This document shows, one piece after another, positions 1-6,668 of a stretch of 64,000 nucleotides of DNA (position 1 is its first letter; each line of letters begins with the position of its first letter). The stretch is from positions 1-64,000 of the forward strand of contig JANQRG010000045.1 in assembly GCA_028284665.1 (NCBI GenBank), written 5' to 3'. The DNA comes from Croceivirga sp. Its GTDB lineage: Bacteria > Bacteroidota > Bacteroidia > Flavobacteriales > Flavobacteriaceae. The notes under the pieces are model-generated. The model was not told the origin of the DNA. It saw only the letters and a list, made by a program, of their open reading frames with translations, and searched no databases. A program made the position numbers and the translations under genes.

Positions 1-253
1 TTCGGCAAAAACCGCTTGCAAAACTCCGCGCTTTAAAAAGCTGTCCTTCGGAGCTTTTGCTTCGCTATTCTGCGGAGAAGGAAAGCTTTTATTCAACATC
101 GCCCACCAACGGCCTATTTTCCATTTCGATGTAAATACGAATGTTGTTTTGTCAGCTCATCGAAGATTTTCAAGAAATAATAGTGCTGCCAGCGGAAGTG
201 CGTTTCGCAAAAAAAAAATACCCCTTTAAGCTCCTCCCTTTTGAAAACCTGTG

Positions 254-310
254 CTGAGCCTGTCGAAGTAGGGAGGTGGATTGATCTGCCAAAGGCAGAC
301 CAAGACGGAG
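254..310. repeat. Dispersed intergenic repeat: CTGAGCCTGTCGAAG core followed by a small palindrome (TCTGCC-AAA-GGCAGA, 285-299) between GGAGGTGGAT and GACGGAGGGAT flanks
   Basis: Read directly; flanks and hairpin layout match (reverse complement) the element near 11239-11268. Confidence 0.55.
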
Positions 311-402
311 GGATTGACCCTATCTGGTAGTTCGGAATTCATTCCCCTCTATTTCAACAGTCTCAGCCACCTCGCAATATAACTTCAACATGGTCACCGA
401 GG

Positions 403-429
403 CGGTGGTTGAGGCTCTCGAAACCACCG
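403..429. repeat. Inverted repeat CGGTGGTT / AACCACCG
   Basis: 8-bp perfect arms around GAGGCTCTCGA in non-coding DNA upstream of the MazG gene. Confidence 0.5.
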
Positions 430-642
430 TCCAAACCTTATTCGAAGAAGTGTTGCCTGAGGTGCTATGCTGAGGTGGTCGCAATCCGGGAAGGTAACAT
501 CGTCAAAAAATACCCCTGCACCAAACCCCCAACTTTTTTATAGGAAAGCCCTAAATAACCATCAGCATTTTTTAGTAAGTCCATGAAATGTTATTTTGGT
601 GTAAAGATTAGAACATAGTATACTTAATTCAACAAGACGATT

Positions 643-963
643 ATGGAAGAAATAATTGAGAAATTGTTAGAATTCAGAAATGAAAGGGATTGGGAGCAAT
701 TCCATAATCCGAAAGATCTAGCTATTGCTTTAAATATTGAGAGTAGCGAGTTATTGGAACAATTTCTTTGGAAAAACTATCACGATGCCAAAGTGGAAAA
801 GGTAAAAAAAGAACTGGCAGATGTTTTCGCTTATGCATTTTTACTAGCTAATTATTACAAGTTTGATGTGAAAGAAATTGTTTTTGATAAAATCCAAGAA
901 AATGGGAAAAAATACCCAATAGGGAAGGCAAAAGGAACTGCCAAAAAATACAATGAATTATAA
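643..963 (+). CDS. MazG-like nucleotide pyrophosphohydrolase
   Basis: 106 aa all-alpha protein with ESSE (EXXE) and ELAD (EXXD) metal-binding motifs; ends with GKKYPIGKAKGTAKKY tail typical of short MazG-like proteins. Confidence 0.85.
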   Translation: MEEIIEKLLEFRNERDWEQFHNPKDLAIALNIESSELLEQFLWKNYHDAKVEKVKKELADVFAYAFLLANYYKFDVKEIVFDKIQENGKKYPIGKAKGTAKKYNEL

Positions 964-3147
964 ATGAATTCTATCGACTTAAAAGTCAATCATTACGATT
1001 TTTCGGATGAATTATTTGAAAATCTAAGTTCAAACCATTTTGCAAAAGATTTATGGCCAGTAGTATATATTCTGAGTAATTACAAAACCAAAGTAGCATA
1101 TGTCGGGGAAACCACTGATGTATATTCCCGAATGTCCACACACTTAAAAAATAGAGAAAAAAGTAAGCTCACATCGGTGCATTTATTAGCCGGCGAAAAA
1201 TTCAACAAATCTGCAACTCTTGATATAGAGTCCAATTTAATCAAATACATGTCAGGTGATAATGTCTTCAGATTGTTGAACGTGAATCTTGGATTAGCCA
1301 ACCATAATTACTATCAAAAAAAAGAAGTTTACTGGAATATCTTCAATTCTCTCTGGAATCTTTTGCGGTCTGAAGGTATTGCTAAGCATTCTCTGGAGTA
1401 TATCGCCAATTCGGATTTATTCAAATACTCTCCGTATAAGAGCTTATCAAAAGATCAAACAATAAGCATAGTAGAAATTCTGGGAAGCCTAATTACAGAA
1501 GGATTTAGTAATATAATTGTTGAGGGAGGAGCTGGCACGGGAAAAACGATTTTGGCTATTTTTCTATTCAAACTCCTATCTAGTCATCATGAAGATTTGA
1601 ATTTTGAAGAATTCGGAGAAGATGAGAAATTGGTATACGAGCTAGCAAATCAATTGATAAATGAGCAATCCTTAAATAAAATGGCCTTAGTTGTGCCTAT
1701 GTCCTCGTTTAGAAAAACCCTTAAAAAAGTGTTTAAAAACATTAAAGGATTAAATCAAAGTATGGTAATTGGACCTTCAGAAGTCAGTAAAGAAAAATAT
1801 GATTTATTGGTAGTTGATGAAGCTCATAGATTAAGGCGTAGGGTAAATCTAACCAATTATAAATCGTTCGATGACGGATGTAAAAGGCTTGGATTAAATA
1901 AATATAATTGCTCTGAGCTTGACTGGATTCTTTTACAATCAAAACAATCCATTCTTTTTTATGATGAAGGACAATCAATTAAACCCACTGATACTCCCAA
2001 AGAAAAGTTTGACTCGTTAAAATTAAAAGACAAGACAATTCTCTTAAAGCTAAAATCCCAATTTAGAGTAAAAGGCGGTAACGCCTATGTAGAATTTGTA
2101 GATTCCTTACTTTTTAATACTACTCAACCCCACAAATTTGATTTTAAAAATTATGAATTTCTTCTTTTTGACAAAATTGAAGATATGATAACTCAAATTA
2201 AAAAAAGAAATGCTGAAATAGGCTTGTCTAGACTCATTGCCGGTTTTTCCTGGAAGTGGAAATCAAAAAACGATAAATCCCTGAAAGACATAAAAATCGA
2301 AAATACTGAGCTCATGTGGAATTCAACACCTGATGACTGGATTAATTCCAAAAATTCGATTGATGAAGTTGGTTGTATTCATACTACACAGGGTTATGAC
2401 CTAAACTATGCAGGTGTAATTTTTGGAAATGAGATATCATATGATTTTTTTAGAAATGAAATTGTTATTAAACCTGAAAACTATCATGATAAAAATGGAA
2501 AGAACACGATAGATGATGTAAATATTCTCAAAGAGTATATCGTGAACATTTATAAAACTATAATGCTGCGTGGAATCAAAGGAACCTACATTTACGTGTG
2601 TGATTCAAATCTTAAGAAATACTTTAACTCCCATATTCCAAAATTCGAATCTAAAAGACTTTCCGAAACTCTAGGTTTTAAATATGAAAACATTATTCCT
2701 TTTGAAAATGCACTGCCATTCTATGATTTGAAAGTAGCCGCGGGCGACTTTAGTGACCAACAAAATCCAAACAGTCGAAAATGGATTGGCTTACCTTATG
2801 ATGTTAAGCCAAGTAAAGAGTTATTTATTTGTCAAGTCGTTGGAGAATCAATGAACAAAGTAATTCCCAACGGATCATATTGCCTTTTTAAAAAATACAC
2901 TGGTGGATCAAGAAATGGGCAGATCGTATTAGTAGAATGTAATGAAATACAAGATCCTGATTTTGGTTCCAGTTATACGGTTAAAGAGTATTTCAGTAAA
3001 AAAAGCATAGATGAAAATGGCTGGAAACATCAATCAATTGTACTGAAACCATTGTCAAATGATGAAGGTTATAAAAATATTGTACTTGAAAATGACCAAC
3101 TATCTTCGTTCAGAGTGATAGGTACTTTCGAATCAGTTATCCAATAA
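964..3147 (+). CDS. GIY-YIG nuclease + DUF2075/Schlafen group 3 helicase + C-terminal S24 (LexA/UmuD-like) peptidase fusion protein
   Basis: N-term VYIL..AYVGET..SRMSTH..DIESNLI (GIY-YIG); Walker A GAGTGKT (aa 189-195), Walker B LLVVDEAHRLRR, HTTQGYDLNYAGVIFG and MLRGIKGTYIYV motifs; C-term LPFYDLKVAAGDFSD..VVGESMNKVIPNGS..YTVKEYF (S24). Confidence 0.85.
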   Translation: MNSIDLKVNHYDFSDELFENLSSNHFAKDLWPVVYILSNYKTKVAYVGETTDVYSRMSTHLKNREKSKLTSVHLLAGEKFNKSATLDIESNLIKYMSGDNVFRLLNVNLGLANHNYYQKKEVYWNIFNSLWNLLRSEGIAKHSLEYIANSDLFKYSPYKSLSKDQTISIVEILGSLITEGFSNIIVEGGAGTGKTILAIFLFKLLSSHHEDLNFEEFGEDEKLVYELANQLINEQSLNKMALVVPMSSFRKTLKKVFKNIKGLNQSMVIGPSEVSKEKYDLLVVDEAHRLRRRVNLTNYKSFDDGCKRLGLNKYNCSELDWILLQSKQSILFYDEGQSIKPTDTPKEKFDSLKLKDKTILLKLKSQFRVKGGNAYVEFVDSLLFNTTQPHKFDFKNYEFLLFDKIEDMITQIKKRNAEIGLSRLIAGFSWKWKSKNDKSLKDIKIENTELMWNSTPDDWINSKNSIDEVGCIHTTQGYDLNYAGVIFGNEISYDFFRNEIVIKPENYHDKNGKNTIDDVNILKEYIVNIYKTIMLRGIKGTYIYVCDSNLKKYFNSHIPKFESKRLSETLGFKYENIIPFENALPFYDLKVAAGDFSDQQNPNSRKWIGLPYDVKPSKELFICQVVGESMNKVIPNGSYCLFKKYTGGSRNGQIVLVECNEIQDPDFGSSYTVKEYFSKKSIDENGWKHQSIVLKPLSNDEGYKNIVLENDQLSSFRVIGTFESVIQ

Positions 3148-3157
3148 AAGATGTTTA

Positions 3158-3631
3158 ATGAAGAAATTAATATTATTAATTATCCTTTTGGTCGCCTGCC
3201 AACCCCAACCTTCAGCGAAAGAGAAATCACAAATCCCAAATTCCAAAGATCAAACTACCTTGACCAAAACCTATATCGACCCCGCCCAGGGCTATTCCCA
3301 AGCAGTAGCGGTAGAAGCCAATGGGATAAAAACGATTTATATTTCCGGGCAAGTGGGTAGTGGAGCCAATTTTGAAGCCCAGTTCCGGGATGCCCTAAGC
3401 AAGCTCTTTACAACCCTGGAGAATTCCGGGGCTTCATTTAAGGATGTCACCAAATACAATACCTATATCGTCAATTACCAACCGGAGTACCTGGATACCT
3501 TCCGAAGGATTCGAAAAGAGCTTTTGGGCGATAAAGATATGCCTGCCAGCACTTTGGTGGGGGTGCAGGCGTTAGGATTACCGGAATGGGGTGTGGAGAT
3601 AGAAGCTACGGCGGTTGTGCAGGTGGAATAA
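3158..3631 (+). CDS. RidA (YjgF/UK114) family protein with lipoprotein signal peptide
   Basis: MKKLILLIILLVACQ lipobox; YISGQVGSG..QFRDALSKLFTTLENSGASFKDV..STLVGVQALGLPEWGVEIEATAVV. Confidence 0.85.
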   Translation: MKKLILLIILLVACQPQPSAKEKSQIPNSKDQTTLTKTYIDPAQGYSQAVAVEANGIKTIYISGQVGSGANFEAQFRDALSKLFTTLENSGASFKDVTKYNTYIVNYQPEYLDTFRRIRKELLGDKDMPASTLVGVQALGLPEWGVEIEATAVVQVE

Positions 3632-3679
3632 GTTGCAAGATTTACTATTTAGGTCCCCTAAGATTCCCTAATTTTAAAC

Positions 3680-3988
3680 ATGCCTTTGGGACCCGACTAC
3701 TATAAAACCTATCAGGGATGGCCGGAACGCTTGGCTACCCGCTACCCGGAGCTCCCTTTTGAGCATCATTGCTATTTACGTATCGCTTTGGATACTACCC
3801 TGGGTGCCAAATGGGATACCAAGATCCGGAAACCGGCCTACCAAAATTTATCCGAAGCTGAATTAAAAACAGTGCTTGGTTATTTTAGGGTATATTTTGA
3901 AGATCCCGACCAATTAATGAAGCATCACCAGAGATCACTGAACTATAGAAACCAATGGAAAAGGAAACAACTCAAATTTGCATTGTAG
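3680..3988 (+). CDS. Conserved hypothetical protein
   Basis: 102 aa ORF, co-oriented, overlaps the downstream oxidoreductase start. Confidence 0.5.
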   Translation: MPLGPDYYKTYQGWPERLATRYPELPFEHHCYLRIALDTTLGAKWDTKIRKPAYQNLSEAELKTVLGYFRVYFEDPDQLMKHHQRSLNYRNQWKRKQLKFAL

Positions 3989-5169
3989 GTGCCGGTATTA
4001 GCGGGCTTATCGCTGCGAAAACCTTGGAACAAGCAGGCTATGCTCCGGTTATTGTAGAGCAATCGGAAACCATTGGGGGACGGGTACAAACCGATGTAGA
4101 AGACGGCATCCATTTTGACCGCGGTTTTCAGGTACTGCTCACCGCCTATCCCCAGGCACAAAAGCACCTGGACTATAAAGCGCTACAACTACATCATTTT
4201 ACCCCTGGGGCACTTATTTTTGGCAAGGGAAAACCACAACGTATCGGGGATCCGTTTCGCGATCTTACCGCTTTATGGCCTACGGCCTGGGCCTCCGTGG
4301 GAACATTGGGCGATAAGATCAAGATCTTCAAACTTACGCAACAGTTAAAGCGCAAAAGTATAGCTGCAATATTCCTGGAACCGGAATTAACTACCGCAGA
4401 TTACTTAAAAAACTACGGTTTTTCCGATACCATTATCGCTAACTTTTTTAAACCCTTCTTTACAGGCATTTTCCTGGAGGAAGAATTACGTACCTCCTCC
4501 CGCATGTTTGAATTTGTCTTTAAGATGTTTGCCGAGGGGGCTGCGGCCATTCCGGCAGCGGGTATCGGAGCGATTCCCCAGCAGTTGAGATCCGGGTTAA
4601 GCAACACCAAATTCCTGATGGGAAAGCAGGTGGCCGAAGTCAACGACAAAGAGCTGGTCTTTACCGATGGCGACACCATTACCGCAGCACATATCATTAC
4701 CACTTCCCCCCTGAGCCCCGCTACGATTACATGGAAATCCTGCGACAACCTCTATTTTGAAGTCGAGGAGCAAAAATTCACTACCGGTATCATTGGCCTG
4801 ATTGCAGCAAAAGACGCCCTAACCAATAACCTTCATTACCTTTTTGAACCCCAGGCCGGAGGGAAAAAAGTGGTGTCGGTTACCGTGGTTAAGGAACATG
4901 CCCTGGATCGAGAGGCGTTAGCCCAAAAAGTAAGTGAGGAACTAACCAATTACTGCGGGATTACCACGATCAGATTATTAAAGCATTACCGGATCCAGAA
5001 GGCGCTCCCCGATATCAAAAATCTCAAAATGAACCGATCGGTATCAGAGTATTCTCCTCAAAAAGGGATGTATACTGCAGGCGACTATTTACTGAACAGC
5101 TCTTTGAATGCCGCTATGCGTTCCGGCGAAGCAACCGCAGAAGCGCTTTTTGACGAACTAGAGCATTAG
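3955..5169 (+). CDS. FAD-dependent amine oxidase/phytoene-desaturase-like oxidoreductase
   Basis: N-term Rossmann GAGISGLIAAKTLEQAGYAPVIVEQSETIGGRVQTD; C-term YTAGDYLLNSSLNAAMRSGEATAEAL. Confidence 0.85.
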   Translation: MEKETTQICIVGAGISGLIAAKTLEQAGYAPVIVEQSETIGGRVQTDVEDGIHFDRGFQVLLTAYPQAQKHLDYKALQLHHFTPGALIFGKGKPQRIGDPFRDLTALWPTAWASVGTLGDKIKIFKLTQQLKRKSIAAIFLEPELTTADYLKNYGFSDTIIANFFKPFFTGIFLEEELRTSSRMFEFVFKMFAEGAAAIPAAGIGAIPQQLRSGLSNTKFLMGKQVAEVNDKELVFTDGDTITAAHIITTSPLSPATITWKSCDNLYFEVEEQKFTTGIIGLIAAKDALTNNLHYLFEPQAGGKKVVSVTVVKEHALDREALAQKVSEELTNYCGITTIRLLKHYRIQKALPDIKNLKMNRSVSEYSPQKGMYTAGDYLLNSSLNAAMRSGEATAEALFDELEH

Positions 5170-5276
5170 TGCTTCAGAAATCCTTAAAACCTTTTAAAAC
5201 CAAAGGTTTGCCCCGATTTCGAACGAACTCACAACATAATTTTCTACACCCGCCTCTTCCGAATTACTTTTGATTG

Positions 5277-6275
5277 ATGGGAAAAACCTGGAACAGCGCT
5301 GTTTTACTGATCATGGGGCTACTGCTAACAGGAACAGCTTGCCTGGCGCAAAATGTTGCTCCCGTAGCCGCTGATGATTCATACACAGCGGGCTTAAATT
5401 TTACCTTACAACCCAATGCCGCCAATGGGCTGCTTGCCAATGATAGTGATGCTAACGGTAATGGTACCCTAAGTGTTCGGACAAGCCCGTTAAGCGGCCC
5501 GAGTAATGGTTTGCTTACCTTAAACGCTGATGGCAGTTTTTCCTACACTCCAAATACCGGATTTACGGGTACAGATACCTTCACCTATCAGGTGTGTGAT
5601 GATGGCACCCCCAACACTGTGGTTTCCCGTTTTGACTTTGACACCGCAACCATAACGGCAGCTACGATTGGCCCGGACGCTACCTCCGTAAACGCTAACG
5701 CCGCTCAAACCGGATGTGGCATTCATTTTCCTAGTGGCGCCGGAGGGTCCACTGGTTTTGATATTATTGTTCCCAACGCTACCGGGATCTTTGACTATAC
5801 TAGCTTTGCAATTTCCTTTGAATATCAGGATCAGGAAAGCACCGCAGATATTATCACCTCAGGGAATGTCAGGATCTATCATATTTCCGGTAATACGATG
5901 GGGATCCAGGTAACGGTGATTCGCGGAGATACAGGCGTACAGCAAACCTATACCCAGACGTTGGGGAATTTTATTAGTGGCAATGTGCCCTACACGGTGG
6001 CCTATGACGAAACTACCGGGAATGTGACGTATACCGCTAATGGCACCACCACAGTATTTGCCGTGGCACCTCCTTTTTCTCCCCTGGACAGCAGCATCGC
6101 TACCGATGTTACCATTGGACGATTTATGGATGGTAGTGGTTCCGCCTTGCCTTCCCTTTGTAGTATGGAATTTGTAGATGCCAGTGCACTTTGTGATGAT
6201 GCTTTGGTCACCCTTACCGTCACCGCATCCGTGATCACCAACCGGAGGATCACCTATCGGGTGAATCCCAACTAA
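5277..6275 (+). CDS. Secreted protein: bacterial Ig/cadherin-like domain with LamG-like insertion
   Basis: Signal peptide; PVAADDSYTAGLNFTL..NGLLANDSDANGNGTL..LTLNADGSFSYTPNTGFTGTDTFTYQVCDDG; C-term ITNRRITYRVNPN. Confidence 0.75.
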   Translation: MGKTWNSAVLLIMGLLLTGTACLAQNVAPVAADDSYTAGLNFTLQPNAANGLLANDSDANGNGTLSVRTSPLSGPSNGLLTLNADGSFSYTPNTGFTGTDTFTYQVCDDGTPNTVVSRFDFDTATITAATIGPDATSVNANAAQTGCGIHFPSGAGGSTGFDIIVPNATGIFDYTSFAISFEYQDQESTADIITSGNVRIYHISGNTMGIQVTVIRGDTGVQQTYTQTLGNFISGNVPYTVAYDETTGNVTYTANGTTTVFAVAPPFSPLDSSIATDVTIGRFMDGSGSALPSLCSMEFVDASALCDDALVTLTVTASVITNRRITYRVNPN

Positions 6276-6299
6276 ATATTTTTAGAGCAGGAAACTACG

Positions 6300-6668
6300 C
6301 TAAGTGGTAGGGGTATATTTATGCTCCAGCAGCATTTCAAAAGTGACATACTCCAGTGCCTTTTCATGCGTAGCTTCAAGGATCACCGGAGGGGCCACGT
6401 CTTCCAGATAGGCCTCCTTCCAGCGCGATACACAAAGACACCATTTATCCCCCGCCTTTAATCCGGGAAATTGATAGTACGGAATTGGAGTGATCAGGTT
6501 ATTCCCGCGACTCAAGGTGAATTTTAAAAAGGGATCCGTCATGATCGCGCAAACCACATGGGTGCCAATGTCTTCGGCCCCGGTCTTACAGTATCCATCC
6601 CGGTAGTACCCTGTTTTCGGATCAAAACAGCAGGGCTGTAATGCTGTCCCTAAAACGTTATTTTCCAT
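6300..6668 (-). CDS. DUF2237 family protein
   Basis: NVLGTALQPCCFDPKTGYYRDGYCKTGAEDIGTHVVCAIMTDPFLKF..GDKWCLCVSRWKEA family signature. Confidence 0.85.
   Translation of the reverse strand: MENNVLGTALQPCCFDPKTGYYRDGYCKTGAEDIGTHVVCAIMTDPFLKFTLSRGNNLITPIPYYQFPGLKAGDKWCLCVSRWKEAYLEDVAPPVILEATHEKALEYVTFEMLLEHKYTPTT

What the first reader, a model, noticed from the sequence alone, without database searches (positions are those of the whole stretch)
643..3147. Candidate defence cassette: MazG-like pyrophosphohydrolase + GIY-YIG/Schlafen-g3 helicase/S24 fusion
Seen: two genes with zero spacing (TAA at 961-963, ATG at 964) pair a nucleotide-pool hydrolase (EXXE/EXXD intact) with one 727-aa protein carrying a GIY-YIG nuclease domain, a DUF2075/Schlafen group 3 P-loop helicase and a C-terminal S24 peptidase module. 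Known: DUF2075 (PF09848) is the prokaryotic relative of Schlafen helicase domains, GIY-YIG is a nuclease fold, MazG proteins hydrolyse NTPs, and S24 modules act as damage-triggered switches in LexA, UmuD and phage repressors. Inference: this is a self-contained stress- or phage-responsive system in which nucleotide depletion and nucleic-acid cleavage combine.
Basis: partly seen in the sequence, partly recalled or inferred. Interest (0 to 1): 0.85.

Follow-up and report, generated by a model that had tools for sequence, protein, structure and literature searches.

The report
Restriction-like nuclease with self-cutting switch
A foreign two-gene cassette sits where sister species keep restriction enzymes: it pairs a DNA-cutting motor protein carrying a self-cleaving, LexA-like tail with a small enzyme that destroys DNA building blocks, and the same pairing recurs across bacteria and archaea, so it is very probably an undescribed anti-phage (restriction-type) system.

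Summary
A 106-aa MazG-like enzyme (643-963) abuts a 727-aa GIY-YIG / Schlafen-group-3 (SF1) helicase / S24 fusion (964-3147), all catalytic residues intact. The cassette is foreign (32% GC versus 43.5%) and absent from 10 congeners; at the same site two congeners carry type I restriction systems instead. MazG is adjacent in 56/57 database relatives and 28/28 loci of two genome samples, and accompanies PD-(D/E)XK-helicase relatives in other phyla and an archaeon. Known defence genes are enriched around it. PADLOC has no model for it. 'Nucleotide depletion' is not supported: the MazG is dCTP-pyrophosphatase-1-like, and a parallel pair exists, Nudix hydrolase plus SauUSI-like (type IV) nuclease-helicase (22/22 loci), sometimes side by side with the MazG pair. 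The S24 tail, with conserved AA|G site, Ser and Lys at LexA/UmuD spacing, also caps SauUSI-like and HsdR-like enzymes. Best reading: a restriction-type system with a pool-cleaning partner and a damage-triggered self-cleavage switch. Defence class well supported; target, the pyrophosphatase's role and the switch's direction are inferred. Generic 5mC targeting is disfavoured: the host has a cytosine methylase. New variant of a known kind.

The parts
643..963 (+). MazG-like (dCTP pyrophosphatase 1-like) nucleotide pyrophosphohydrolase, 106 aa; metal/phosphate residues E33, E36, E57, D60; W17, H21, W43 conserved
   Evidence: Pfam PF12643 6.7e-17; best solved relatives 4qgp and RS21-C6/dCTPP1 4e-15 with aligned residues; residues kept in 83-85 of 85 homologues
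964..3147 (+). GIY-YIG nuclease / Schlafen group 3 SF1 helicase / S24 peptidase fusion, 727 aa
   Evidence: AlphaFold2 model mean pLDDT 80, helicase core matches SF1 helicases including SLFN11, Upf1, RecD2 and Dda
1060..1293 (+). GIY-YIG nuclease domain (aa ~33-110; Y35, Y46, G48, R56, E89)
   Evidence: Pfam PF01541; invariant residues
1513..2604 (+). SLFN-g3 helicase domain (aa 184-547), Walker A GGAGTGKT aa 188-195, Walker B D285-E286
   Evidence: Pfam PF09848 7.9e-66; conservation
2737..2745 (+). Predicted autocleavage site A592-A593|G594 in a low-confidence loop (aa 591-601); cleavage would leave a ...VAA C-terminus
   Evidence: A592 47/50, A593 48/50, G594 48/50; loop pLDDT 37; V/A-A-A pattern
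2716..3123 (+). S24 peptidase (LexA/UmuD-like) module, catalytic S629 (2848-2850) and K674 (2983-2985)
   Evidence: Pfam PF00717 2.3e-8; S629 and K674 50/50; spacing G->S 34-37, S->K 45 across fusions
595..626 (+). Bacteroidota-type promoter-like site by eye: TTTG (595-598), N20, TATACTTA (619-626)
   Evidence: Read from sequence; consensus recalled; weak, 4 of 6 specified positions in the -7 element
1..574 (.). Conserved left flank of the slot (contig end at base 1); 1-402 is 86.6% identical to the region just downstream of an oxidoreductase gene in congener G001; pieces of it match congener G008
3263..6664 (+). Conserved right flank of the slot (RidA-like, 102-aa ORF, FAD oxidoreductase), 86% identical in G001 and 78% in G008; synteny breaks at 3263

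Best explanation
A horizontally exchanged, restriction-type anti-phage module. SHOWN (sequence and context): an intact nuclease-helicase translationally coupled to a dCTPP1-type pyrophosphohydrolase; the pairing is near-obligate and spans phyla; the cassette occupies a chromosomal slot that holds type I R-M in sister species; its S24 tail keeps every residue needed for LexA/UmuD-type self-cleavage. INFERRED: (1) the SF1 helicase loads on and translocates along invading DNA and the GIY-YIG domain cuts it, probably recognising an unusual feature such as modified bases, by analogy with SauUSI and the McrB-N neighbours. (2) The MazG partner removes modified (mostly 5-substituted cytosine) dNTPs, so that the host's own DNA never acquires the mark the nuclease attacks and/or a phage is robbed of its modified precursors. 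(3) RecA-type DNA-damage signals trigger cleavage at A593|G594, cutting off the S24 tail. The new ...VAA end resembles the ClpXP degron left on cleaved LexA, so the likelier outcome is removal of the enzyme when host DNA is damaged (built-in restriction alleviation). The opposite outcome, activation, remains open because tail-less relatives exist and look functional.
For: Linkage: MazG adjacent in 56/57 relatives, 11/11 GIY-YIG-SLFN loci of a 395-genome phylum sample plus two relatives' loci and 17/17 of a class sample (samples partly overlap). About 47 of 84 MazG-helicase pairs overlap by 4 bases and most others lie within -7..+17. Six of seven PD-(D/E)XK-type SLFN-g3 loci in the phylum sample also carry MazG. 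12 of 30 plasmids with this MazG also carry SLFN-g3, expected about 0.03, including an archaeon. Defence: same-site type I R-M in G001 and G008; 0/10 congeners carry it; GC 32.1% versus 43.5 +/- 2.4; 85 PADLOC models hit among 97 neighbours (RdrB, Drt2, AbiEi/ii, type II MTase) versus 4 generic ones among 99 controls. Modification-dependent analogy: Nudix + SauUSI-like type IV enzymes 22/22, next to MazG-SLFN in L002, L024, L049, L061, L201, L206, L211; McrB-N/HNH neighbours in Priestia and Paenibacillus. MazG nearest to dCTPP1, which acts on dCTP and modified dCTPs (PMC7162842). Switch: conserved AAG/Ser/Lys in GIY-SLFN, SauUSI-like and HsdR-like fusions.
Against: No modified-base-binding domain was found in the window protein. 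Cytosine-C5 methylases are present in the host itself and in 8/14 carriers (6/6 in its own family) versus 27/33 non-carriers, with one directly beside the cassette in Cellulophaga, so generic 5mC cannot be the target. Nudix substrate class is ambiguous (MutT-like as much as NudG-like). Tail-less relatives (L132, L053, SauUSI itself) show S24 is dispensable for the enzyme class, and removing the tail might activate rather than destroy it. The ClpXP step rests on recalled LexA biology (paper not held). No experimental data.
Confidence: 0.5

Rival explanations
1. Abortive-infection system by nucleotide depletion: MazG destroys dCTP or other dNTPs on infection while the nuclease cuts nucleic acids.
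For: MazG is catalytically intact and dCTPP1-like; dCTP-removing defence (dCTP deaminase) is known; strict operon coupling.
Against: No sign of a regulated or toxic hydrolase; dCTPP1-type enzymes are constitutive house-cleaners; the parallel partner of SauUSI is a MutT/NudG-like sanitising Nudix enzyme, not a depletion enzyme.
Confidence: 0.17
2. Gabija-like control: the nuclease-helicase is held inactive by (d)NTPs and the MazG enzyme lowers the local concentration to license cutting.
For: Nuclease-helicase plus NTP hydrolase operon; Gabija nuclease is NTP-inhibited (recalled).
Against: No sequence relation to GajA/GajB; no PADLOC hit; the helicase itself needs ATP, and dCTPP1-type enzymes act on pyrimidine dNTPs.
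Confidence: 0.1
3. The MazG partner is offensive: it degrades a phage's hypermodified dNTP precursors, so that the phage either replicates with plain DNA or starves, and the nuclease removes genomes that still carry modification.
For: dCTPP1 family accepts 5-modified dCTP (PMC7162842); neighbours include SauUSI-like and McrB-N proteins.
Against: Cannot be told from pool sanitation by sequence; no evidence on which phages are met.
Confidence: 0.15
4. An SOS-type DNA repair or tolerance cassette: pool cleaner, UmuD-like tail and helicase-nuclease acting on damaged host DNA.
For: S24 tail, RecD2/Upf1-like helicase fold, house-cleaning MazG.
Against: Sporadic, low-GC, exchanged with type I R-M at the same site, next to defence genes, on plasmids; restriction enzymes (SauUSI-like, HsdR-like) bear the same tail.
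Confidence: 0.06

Closest known systems
[quoted passage not shown]
   Same: Single-chain N-terminal nuclease plus helicase; small nucleotide pyrophosphohydrolase gene directly upstream; in many Bacteroidota the same S24 tail; sometimes side by side with the MazG pair
   Different: Different nuclease (GIY-YIG), different helicase superfamily (SF1, SLFN-g3), no DUF3427/SRA recognition domain, MazG instead of Nudix; target unknown
DUF2075 / SLFN-g3 helicase proteins (PF09848)
   Same: Same helicase domain; PF09848 already appears in a published list of Abi/defence Pfams (PMC10121019)
   Different: No published account found of the MazG pairing, the nuclease swap or the S24 tail
Bacterial Schlafens (Schlafen RNase-core defence proteins)
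   Same: Related name and helicase clade (SLFN11 among fold matches)
   Different: The window protein has no Schlafen RNase (AlbA-like) core; nuclease is GIY-YIG
LexA / UmuD / phage repressors (S24 autoproteases)
   Same: A|G site, Ser and Lys at canonical spacing
   Different: Fused to a restriction-type nuclease-helicase instead of a DNA-binding or polymerase-accessory domain
dCTP pyrophosphatase 1 (DCTPP1 / RS21-C6)
   Same: MazG-like all-alpha fold, metal residues and both tryptophans aligned
   Different: Operon partner of a nuclease-helicase; substrate untested; RS21-C6 H38 is Leu here
MazG-containing predicted defence systems of DefensePredictor
   Same: MazG domain predicted as defensive (PMC13092281)
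   Different: The paper's text does not describe this pairing (DUF2075, GIY-YIG and S24 absent from its text)

Membership tests
Type IV modification-dependent restriction systems | Cleaves DNA only when it carries a modification | not testable with these tools
   Needs biochemistry
Type IV modification-dependent restriction systems | Recognisable modified-base reader (SRA, DUF3427, McrB-N, EVE) in the protein | tested here: not met
   No such Pfam domain in the 727-aa protein; McrB-N occurs only in a neighbouring gene of two distant relatives
Type IV modification-dependent restriction systems | Host lacks the targeted modification (5mC if SauUSI-like) | tested here: not met
   C5-methylase in host and 8/14 carriers
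SauUSI family (PADLOC mREase_IV) | PLD nuclease + SF2 helicase + DUF3427 | tested here: not met
   GIY-YIG + SF1/SLFN-g3 + S24; no mREase_IV hit
Any system in PADLOC-DB 2.0.0 | Full-length match to a system model | tested here: not met
   MazG: none; fusion: only weak partial hits, 1e-4
GIY-YIG nucleases | GIY/YIG tyrosines, Gly, Arg and Glu | tested here: met
   Pfam above cut-off; Y35, Y46, G48, R56, E89 invariant; GIY is degenerate (VVY)
SLFN-g3 helicases (PF09848) | Domain match with Walker A/B | tested here: met
   7.9e-66; K194, D285, E286 50/50; SF1 fold
S24 autoproteases (LexA/UmuD) | Ser/Lys dyad and A-G (or C-G) site 34-37 residues before Ser | tested here: met
   S629, K674, A593|G594 at 35 residues
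S24 autoproteases (LexA/UmuD) | RecA-stimulated self-cleavage | not testable with these tools
   Needs purified protein
dCTPP1 subgroup of MazG/all-alpha NTP-PPases | EXXE/EXXD plus tryptophans W47 and W73 of RS21-C6 | tested here: met
   E33/E36/E57/D60, W17, W43 aligned and conserved
[quoted passage not shown]
   Substrate assay needed
Schlafen RNase defence proteins | Schlafen RNase core domain | tested here: not met
   Absent from Pfam scan
Gabija | GajA (ATPase-TOPRIM) and GajB (UvrD-like) homologues | tested here: not met
   No Gabija hit in PADLOC scan
Phage or prophage gene | Occurrence in viral contigs or phage genomes | tested here: not met
   No relative in 2.9 million viral contigs with the profile-pattern scan; 5 weak/partial phage records, 3 of them unannotated faecal contigs

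The most novel reading that the evidence does not exclude
Restriction nuclease-helicases of at least three unrelated families share a LexA/UmuD-type self-cleaving tail that couples restriction to the host's DNA-damage state, and two of these families carry a dedicated nucleotide-pool sanitiser as a self-immunity partner in place of a methylase: a general design, restriction + pool sanitiser + proteolytic damage switch, that has not been described.
Probability: 0.33. Interest if true: 0.9.

Novelty: new variant of a known kind. Interest (0 to 1): 0.7.

Why it matters
Restriction without a methylase has to avoid self-attack; a dNTP pyrophosphohydrolase that keeps the target mark out of host DNA would be a new way to do it, and would explain why MutT-like genes sit beside SauUSI homologues (noted without explanation in PMC7641849). 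A LexA-type tail on several restriction families would give a direct, testable protein link between DNA damage and restriction alleviation, so far known through ClpXP on type I enzymes. The pair occurs in about 5% of sampled Bacteroidia genomes and, in its PD-(D/E)XK form, in archaea, yet PADLOC lacks it.

Tried and rejected
Generic 5mC target: tested through C5-methylase co-occurrence; no avoidance. Phage origin: viral contigs and phage records give no real relatives. A dispersed repeat at the left flank: single copy in the own genome. Sequence search of the whole fusion, the S24 module and the GIY-YIG module in the PDB: no hits. Foldseek on the PD-(D/E)XK relative: model too poor (pLDDT 64), only helicase matches, so the nuclease call there rests on the invariant E69 / D80 / E98-x-K100 signature. 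Literature searches for the MazG-DUF2075, GIY-YIG-DUF2075 and S24 combinations found nothing; subscription papers and preprints were not searchable, so prior description cannot be excluded. A regex for S24 sites failed and was replaced; apparent misses L191-L195 proved intact on inspection.

Full report
OBSERVATION. The two ORFs lie as described: 643-963 (106 aa) and 964-3147 (727 aa), with no base between stop and start. Pfam places MazG-like in the first, and GIY-YIG, SLFN-g3 helicase (DUF2075) and Peptidase_S24 in the second, all above curated cut-offs. An AlphaFold2 model (37 sequences, mean pLDDT 80) gives a confident helicase core whose closest solved folds are SF1 helicases including Upf1, SLFN11, RecD2 and Dda. 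The GIY-YIG tyrosines, arginine and glutamate, Walker A K194, Walker B D285/E286, and the S24 Ser629 and Lys674 are invariant among full-length homologues.

SURROUNDINGS. The cassette has 32.1% GC in a window averaging 43.5% (sd 2.4 over 2.5-kb windows). It is missing from ten other species of the genus. The flanks are conserved: base 3263 onwards is 86% identical to G001 and 78% to G008, and bases 1-402 match G001 just downstream of an oxidoreductase gene. Between these same flanks G001 carries HsdR-HsdS-(AAA_13, PrrC-like)-HsdM, and G008 carries an Mrr-type gene plus HsdM-HsdS-HsdR (Pfam); in G003 no defence gene was recognised there by eye. The locus is therefore a slot where restriction systems are exchanged. 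Among 97 genes next to 13 related cassettes, 85 PADLOC models are hit at E <= 1e-15 (RdrB, Drt2, AbiEi/AbiEii, a type II methylase); 99 genes from other places in the same genomes hit 4, all generic. Many of the 85 models overlap on one methylase gene, so the number of distinct neighbouring defence genes is about five or six against none clear-cut in the control.

THE MazG LINK. All but one of 57 database relatives have the MazG ORF directly upstream; the exception, L058, is a 66-residue fragment. Two samples of whole genomes, picked without regard to MazG, give 11/11 and 17/17; the samples and the database set share some genomes. About 47 of 84 pairs overlap by ATGA. SLFN-g3 proteins with a different N-terminal nuclease, a PD-(D/E)XK signature with invariant E69, D80 and E98-x-K100, keep the MazG partner in six of seven cases. 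On plasmids, 12 of the 30 records with this MazG also have SLFN-g3, adjacent in Marivirga, Priestia, Halomonas, Lactiplantibacillus, Ligilactobacillus, Nocardiopsis and the archaeon Halalkalicoccus (expected 0.02-0.03). So the core unit is MazG plus an SLFN-g3 helicase with an exchangeable nuclease.

WHAT THE MazG IS. Its best solved relatives are a pyrophosphatase (4qgp) and dCTP pyrophosphatase 1 / RS21-C6 (2a3q, 6sqw; 4e-15). W17, H21, E33, E36, W43, E57, D60 and Y64 align with W47, H51, E63, E66, W73, E95, D98 and Y102, and all but Y64 are kept in 83-85 of 85 partners. DCTPP1 has high affinity for dCTP and modified dCTPs (PMC7162842). RS21-C6 residue H38 is a leucine here, so substrate preference must be measured.

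A PARALLEL SYSTEM. The S24 tail led to a second pair in G012, a genome of the same family: a Nudix hydrolase (PADLOC candidate PDC-S07; nearest solved 3gwy, a putative CTP pyrophosphohydrolase) overlapping a PLD nuclease - SF2 helicase - DUF3427 - S24 protein that matches PADLOC's type IV mREase at 2e-230. PLD-helicase-DUF3427 is the architecture of SauUSI, which needs ATP and cuts m5C/hm5C DNA (PMC3874153). Nudix is adjacent in 22/22 such loci, with or without the S24 tail (L087, L135-L139, L196-L211). The MutT neighbour of SauUSI homologues was seen in Bell et al. 2020 (PMC7641849) without explanation. The MazG pair and the Nudix pair sit next to each other in L002, L024, L049, L061 (lactobacillus plasmid), L201, L206 and L211. 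In Priestia and Paenibacillus an McrB-N/HNH protein precedes the SLFN-g3 operon or gene. NCBIfam cannot separate MutT from NudG for the Nudix partner.

THE S24 TAIL. In GIY-YIG-SLFN, SauUSI-like and HsdR-like (L140, L141; HSDR_N + T1R_D3 + S24) proteins the tail has an A-G site 34-37 residues before Ser and a Lys 45 after it. The residues before the cut are V/A-A-A in nearly all. From established LexA biology (recalled; paper not held), cleavage leaves a VAA end that ClpXP recognises; ClpXP-mediated restriction alleviation after damage is known for type I enzymes (PMC12707154). Tail-less relatives exist (L132, L053, six SauUSI-like loci), so the tail is regulatory. In a distant relative from a Nomurabacteria MAG (L046) the tail is of another S24 lineage with a Cys-Gly pair near the corresponding place, which suggests repeated acquisition. 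The window genome has only one other S24 protein, an XRE-type repressor-like protein.

MECHANISM AND LIMITS. The best-supported statement is that this is a mobile restriction-type defence module (about 0.85 for defence in the broad sense, judgement). That it reads modified DNA, that MazG sanitises the pool for self-immunity, and that S24 alleviates restriction on damage are inferences (about 0.4, 0.4 and 0.5 each). The clearest counter-evidence is that cytosine-C5 methylases are common in carriers, including the host, so simple 5mC is not the target. The direction of the switch is open: cleavage yields a protein resembling natural tail-less forms, which argues for activation, while the VAA end and the presence of the tail on HsdR argue for alleviation.

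NOVELTY. DUF2075 (PF09848) was already on a list of defence Pfams (PMC10121019) and MazG domains are predicted defensive by DefensePredictor (PMC13092281). The fixed MazG-SLFN-g3 pair, its nuclease swaps, the parallel Nudix-SauUSI pair and the common self-cleaving tail were not found described in the searchable literature, nor in PADLOC 2.0.0. Preprints and subscription journals were out of reach.

Noticed in passing
L087 7732-11452 (minus strand); L135-L139, L196-L211: Nudix hydrolase fixed next to SauUSI-like type IV nuclease-helicases, many with an S24 tail: a parallel to the MazG pair.
   Followed up: yes
L140 9036-12581 (minus), L141 6025-9567 (plus): HsdR-like restriction subunits with the same C-terminal S24 autoprotease module and AAG site.
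   Followed up: partly
L143-L148, L060: SLFN-g3 helicases with an N-terminal PD-(D/E)XK-signature domain not covered by Pfam, also paired with MazG; in Halomonas (L060) an S24 module follows in another frame and MazG lies downstream.
   Followed up: partly
L088, L089 (slot between an oxidoreductase gene and RidA): The same chromosomal slot holds different type I R-M systems in two congeners; in G001 a PrrC-like AAA_13 protein lies between HsdS and HsdM.
   Followed up: yes
L124 5887-8088; L042 10556-12757: A 734-aa ORF with two cytosine-C5 methylase domain matches sits directly beside the cassette in Cellulophaga.
   Followed up: partly
L046 8001-10151: A Candidatus Nomurabacteria MAG protein has the GIY-YIG-helicase part at 60% identity but a different S24 lineage with a Cys-Gly pair where the others have Ala-Gly.
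   Followed up: no
L165 3960-7866: Priestia plasmid island: MutT, McrB-N/HNH, MazG, PD-(D/E)XK-SLFN-g3, then HsdM, HsdS and an R-M-associated AAA ATPase.
   Followed up: partly
L133 7804-10511: In G260 the SLFN and S24 parts are separate tblastn matches within one 801-aa frame, so the linker is longer than usual.
   Followed up: no
L212 1183-1971 (minus); G000 whole genome: Only two S24 proteins were found in the window's assembly (this one and an XRE-type repressor-like protein, C30:161436-161774); no canonical LexA or UmuD was found.
   Followed up: partly
window 1: The window starts at a contig end, 642 bases before the cassette, so genes further left in this genome are unseen.
   Followed up: no
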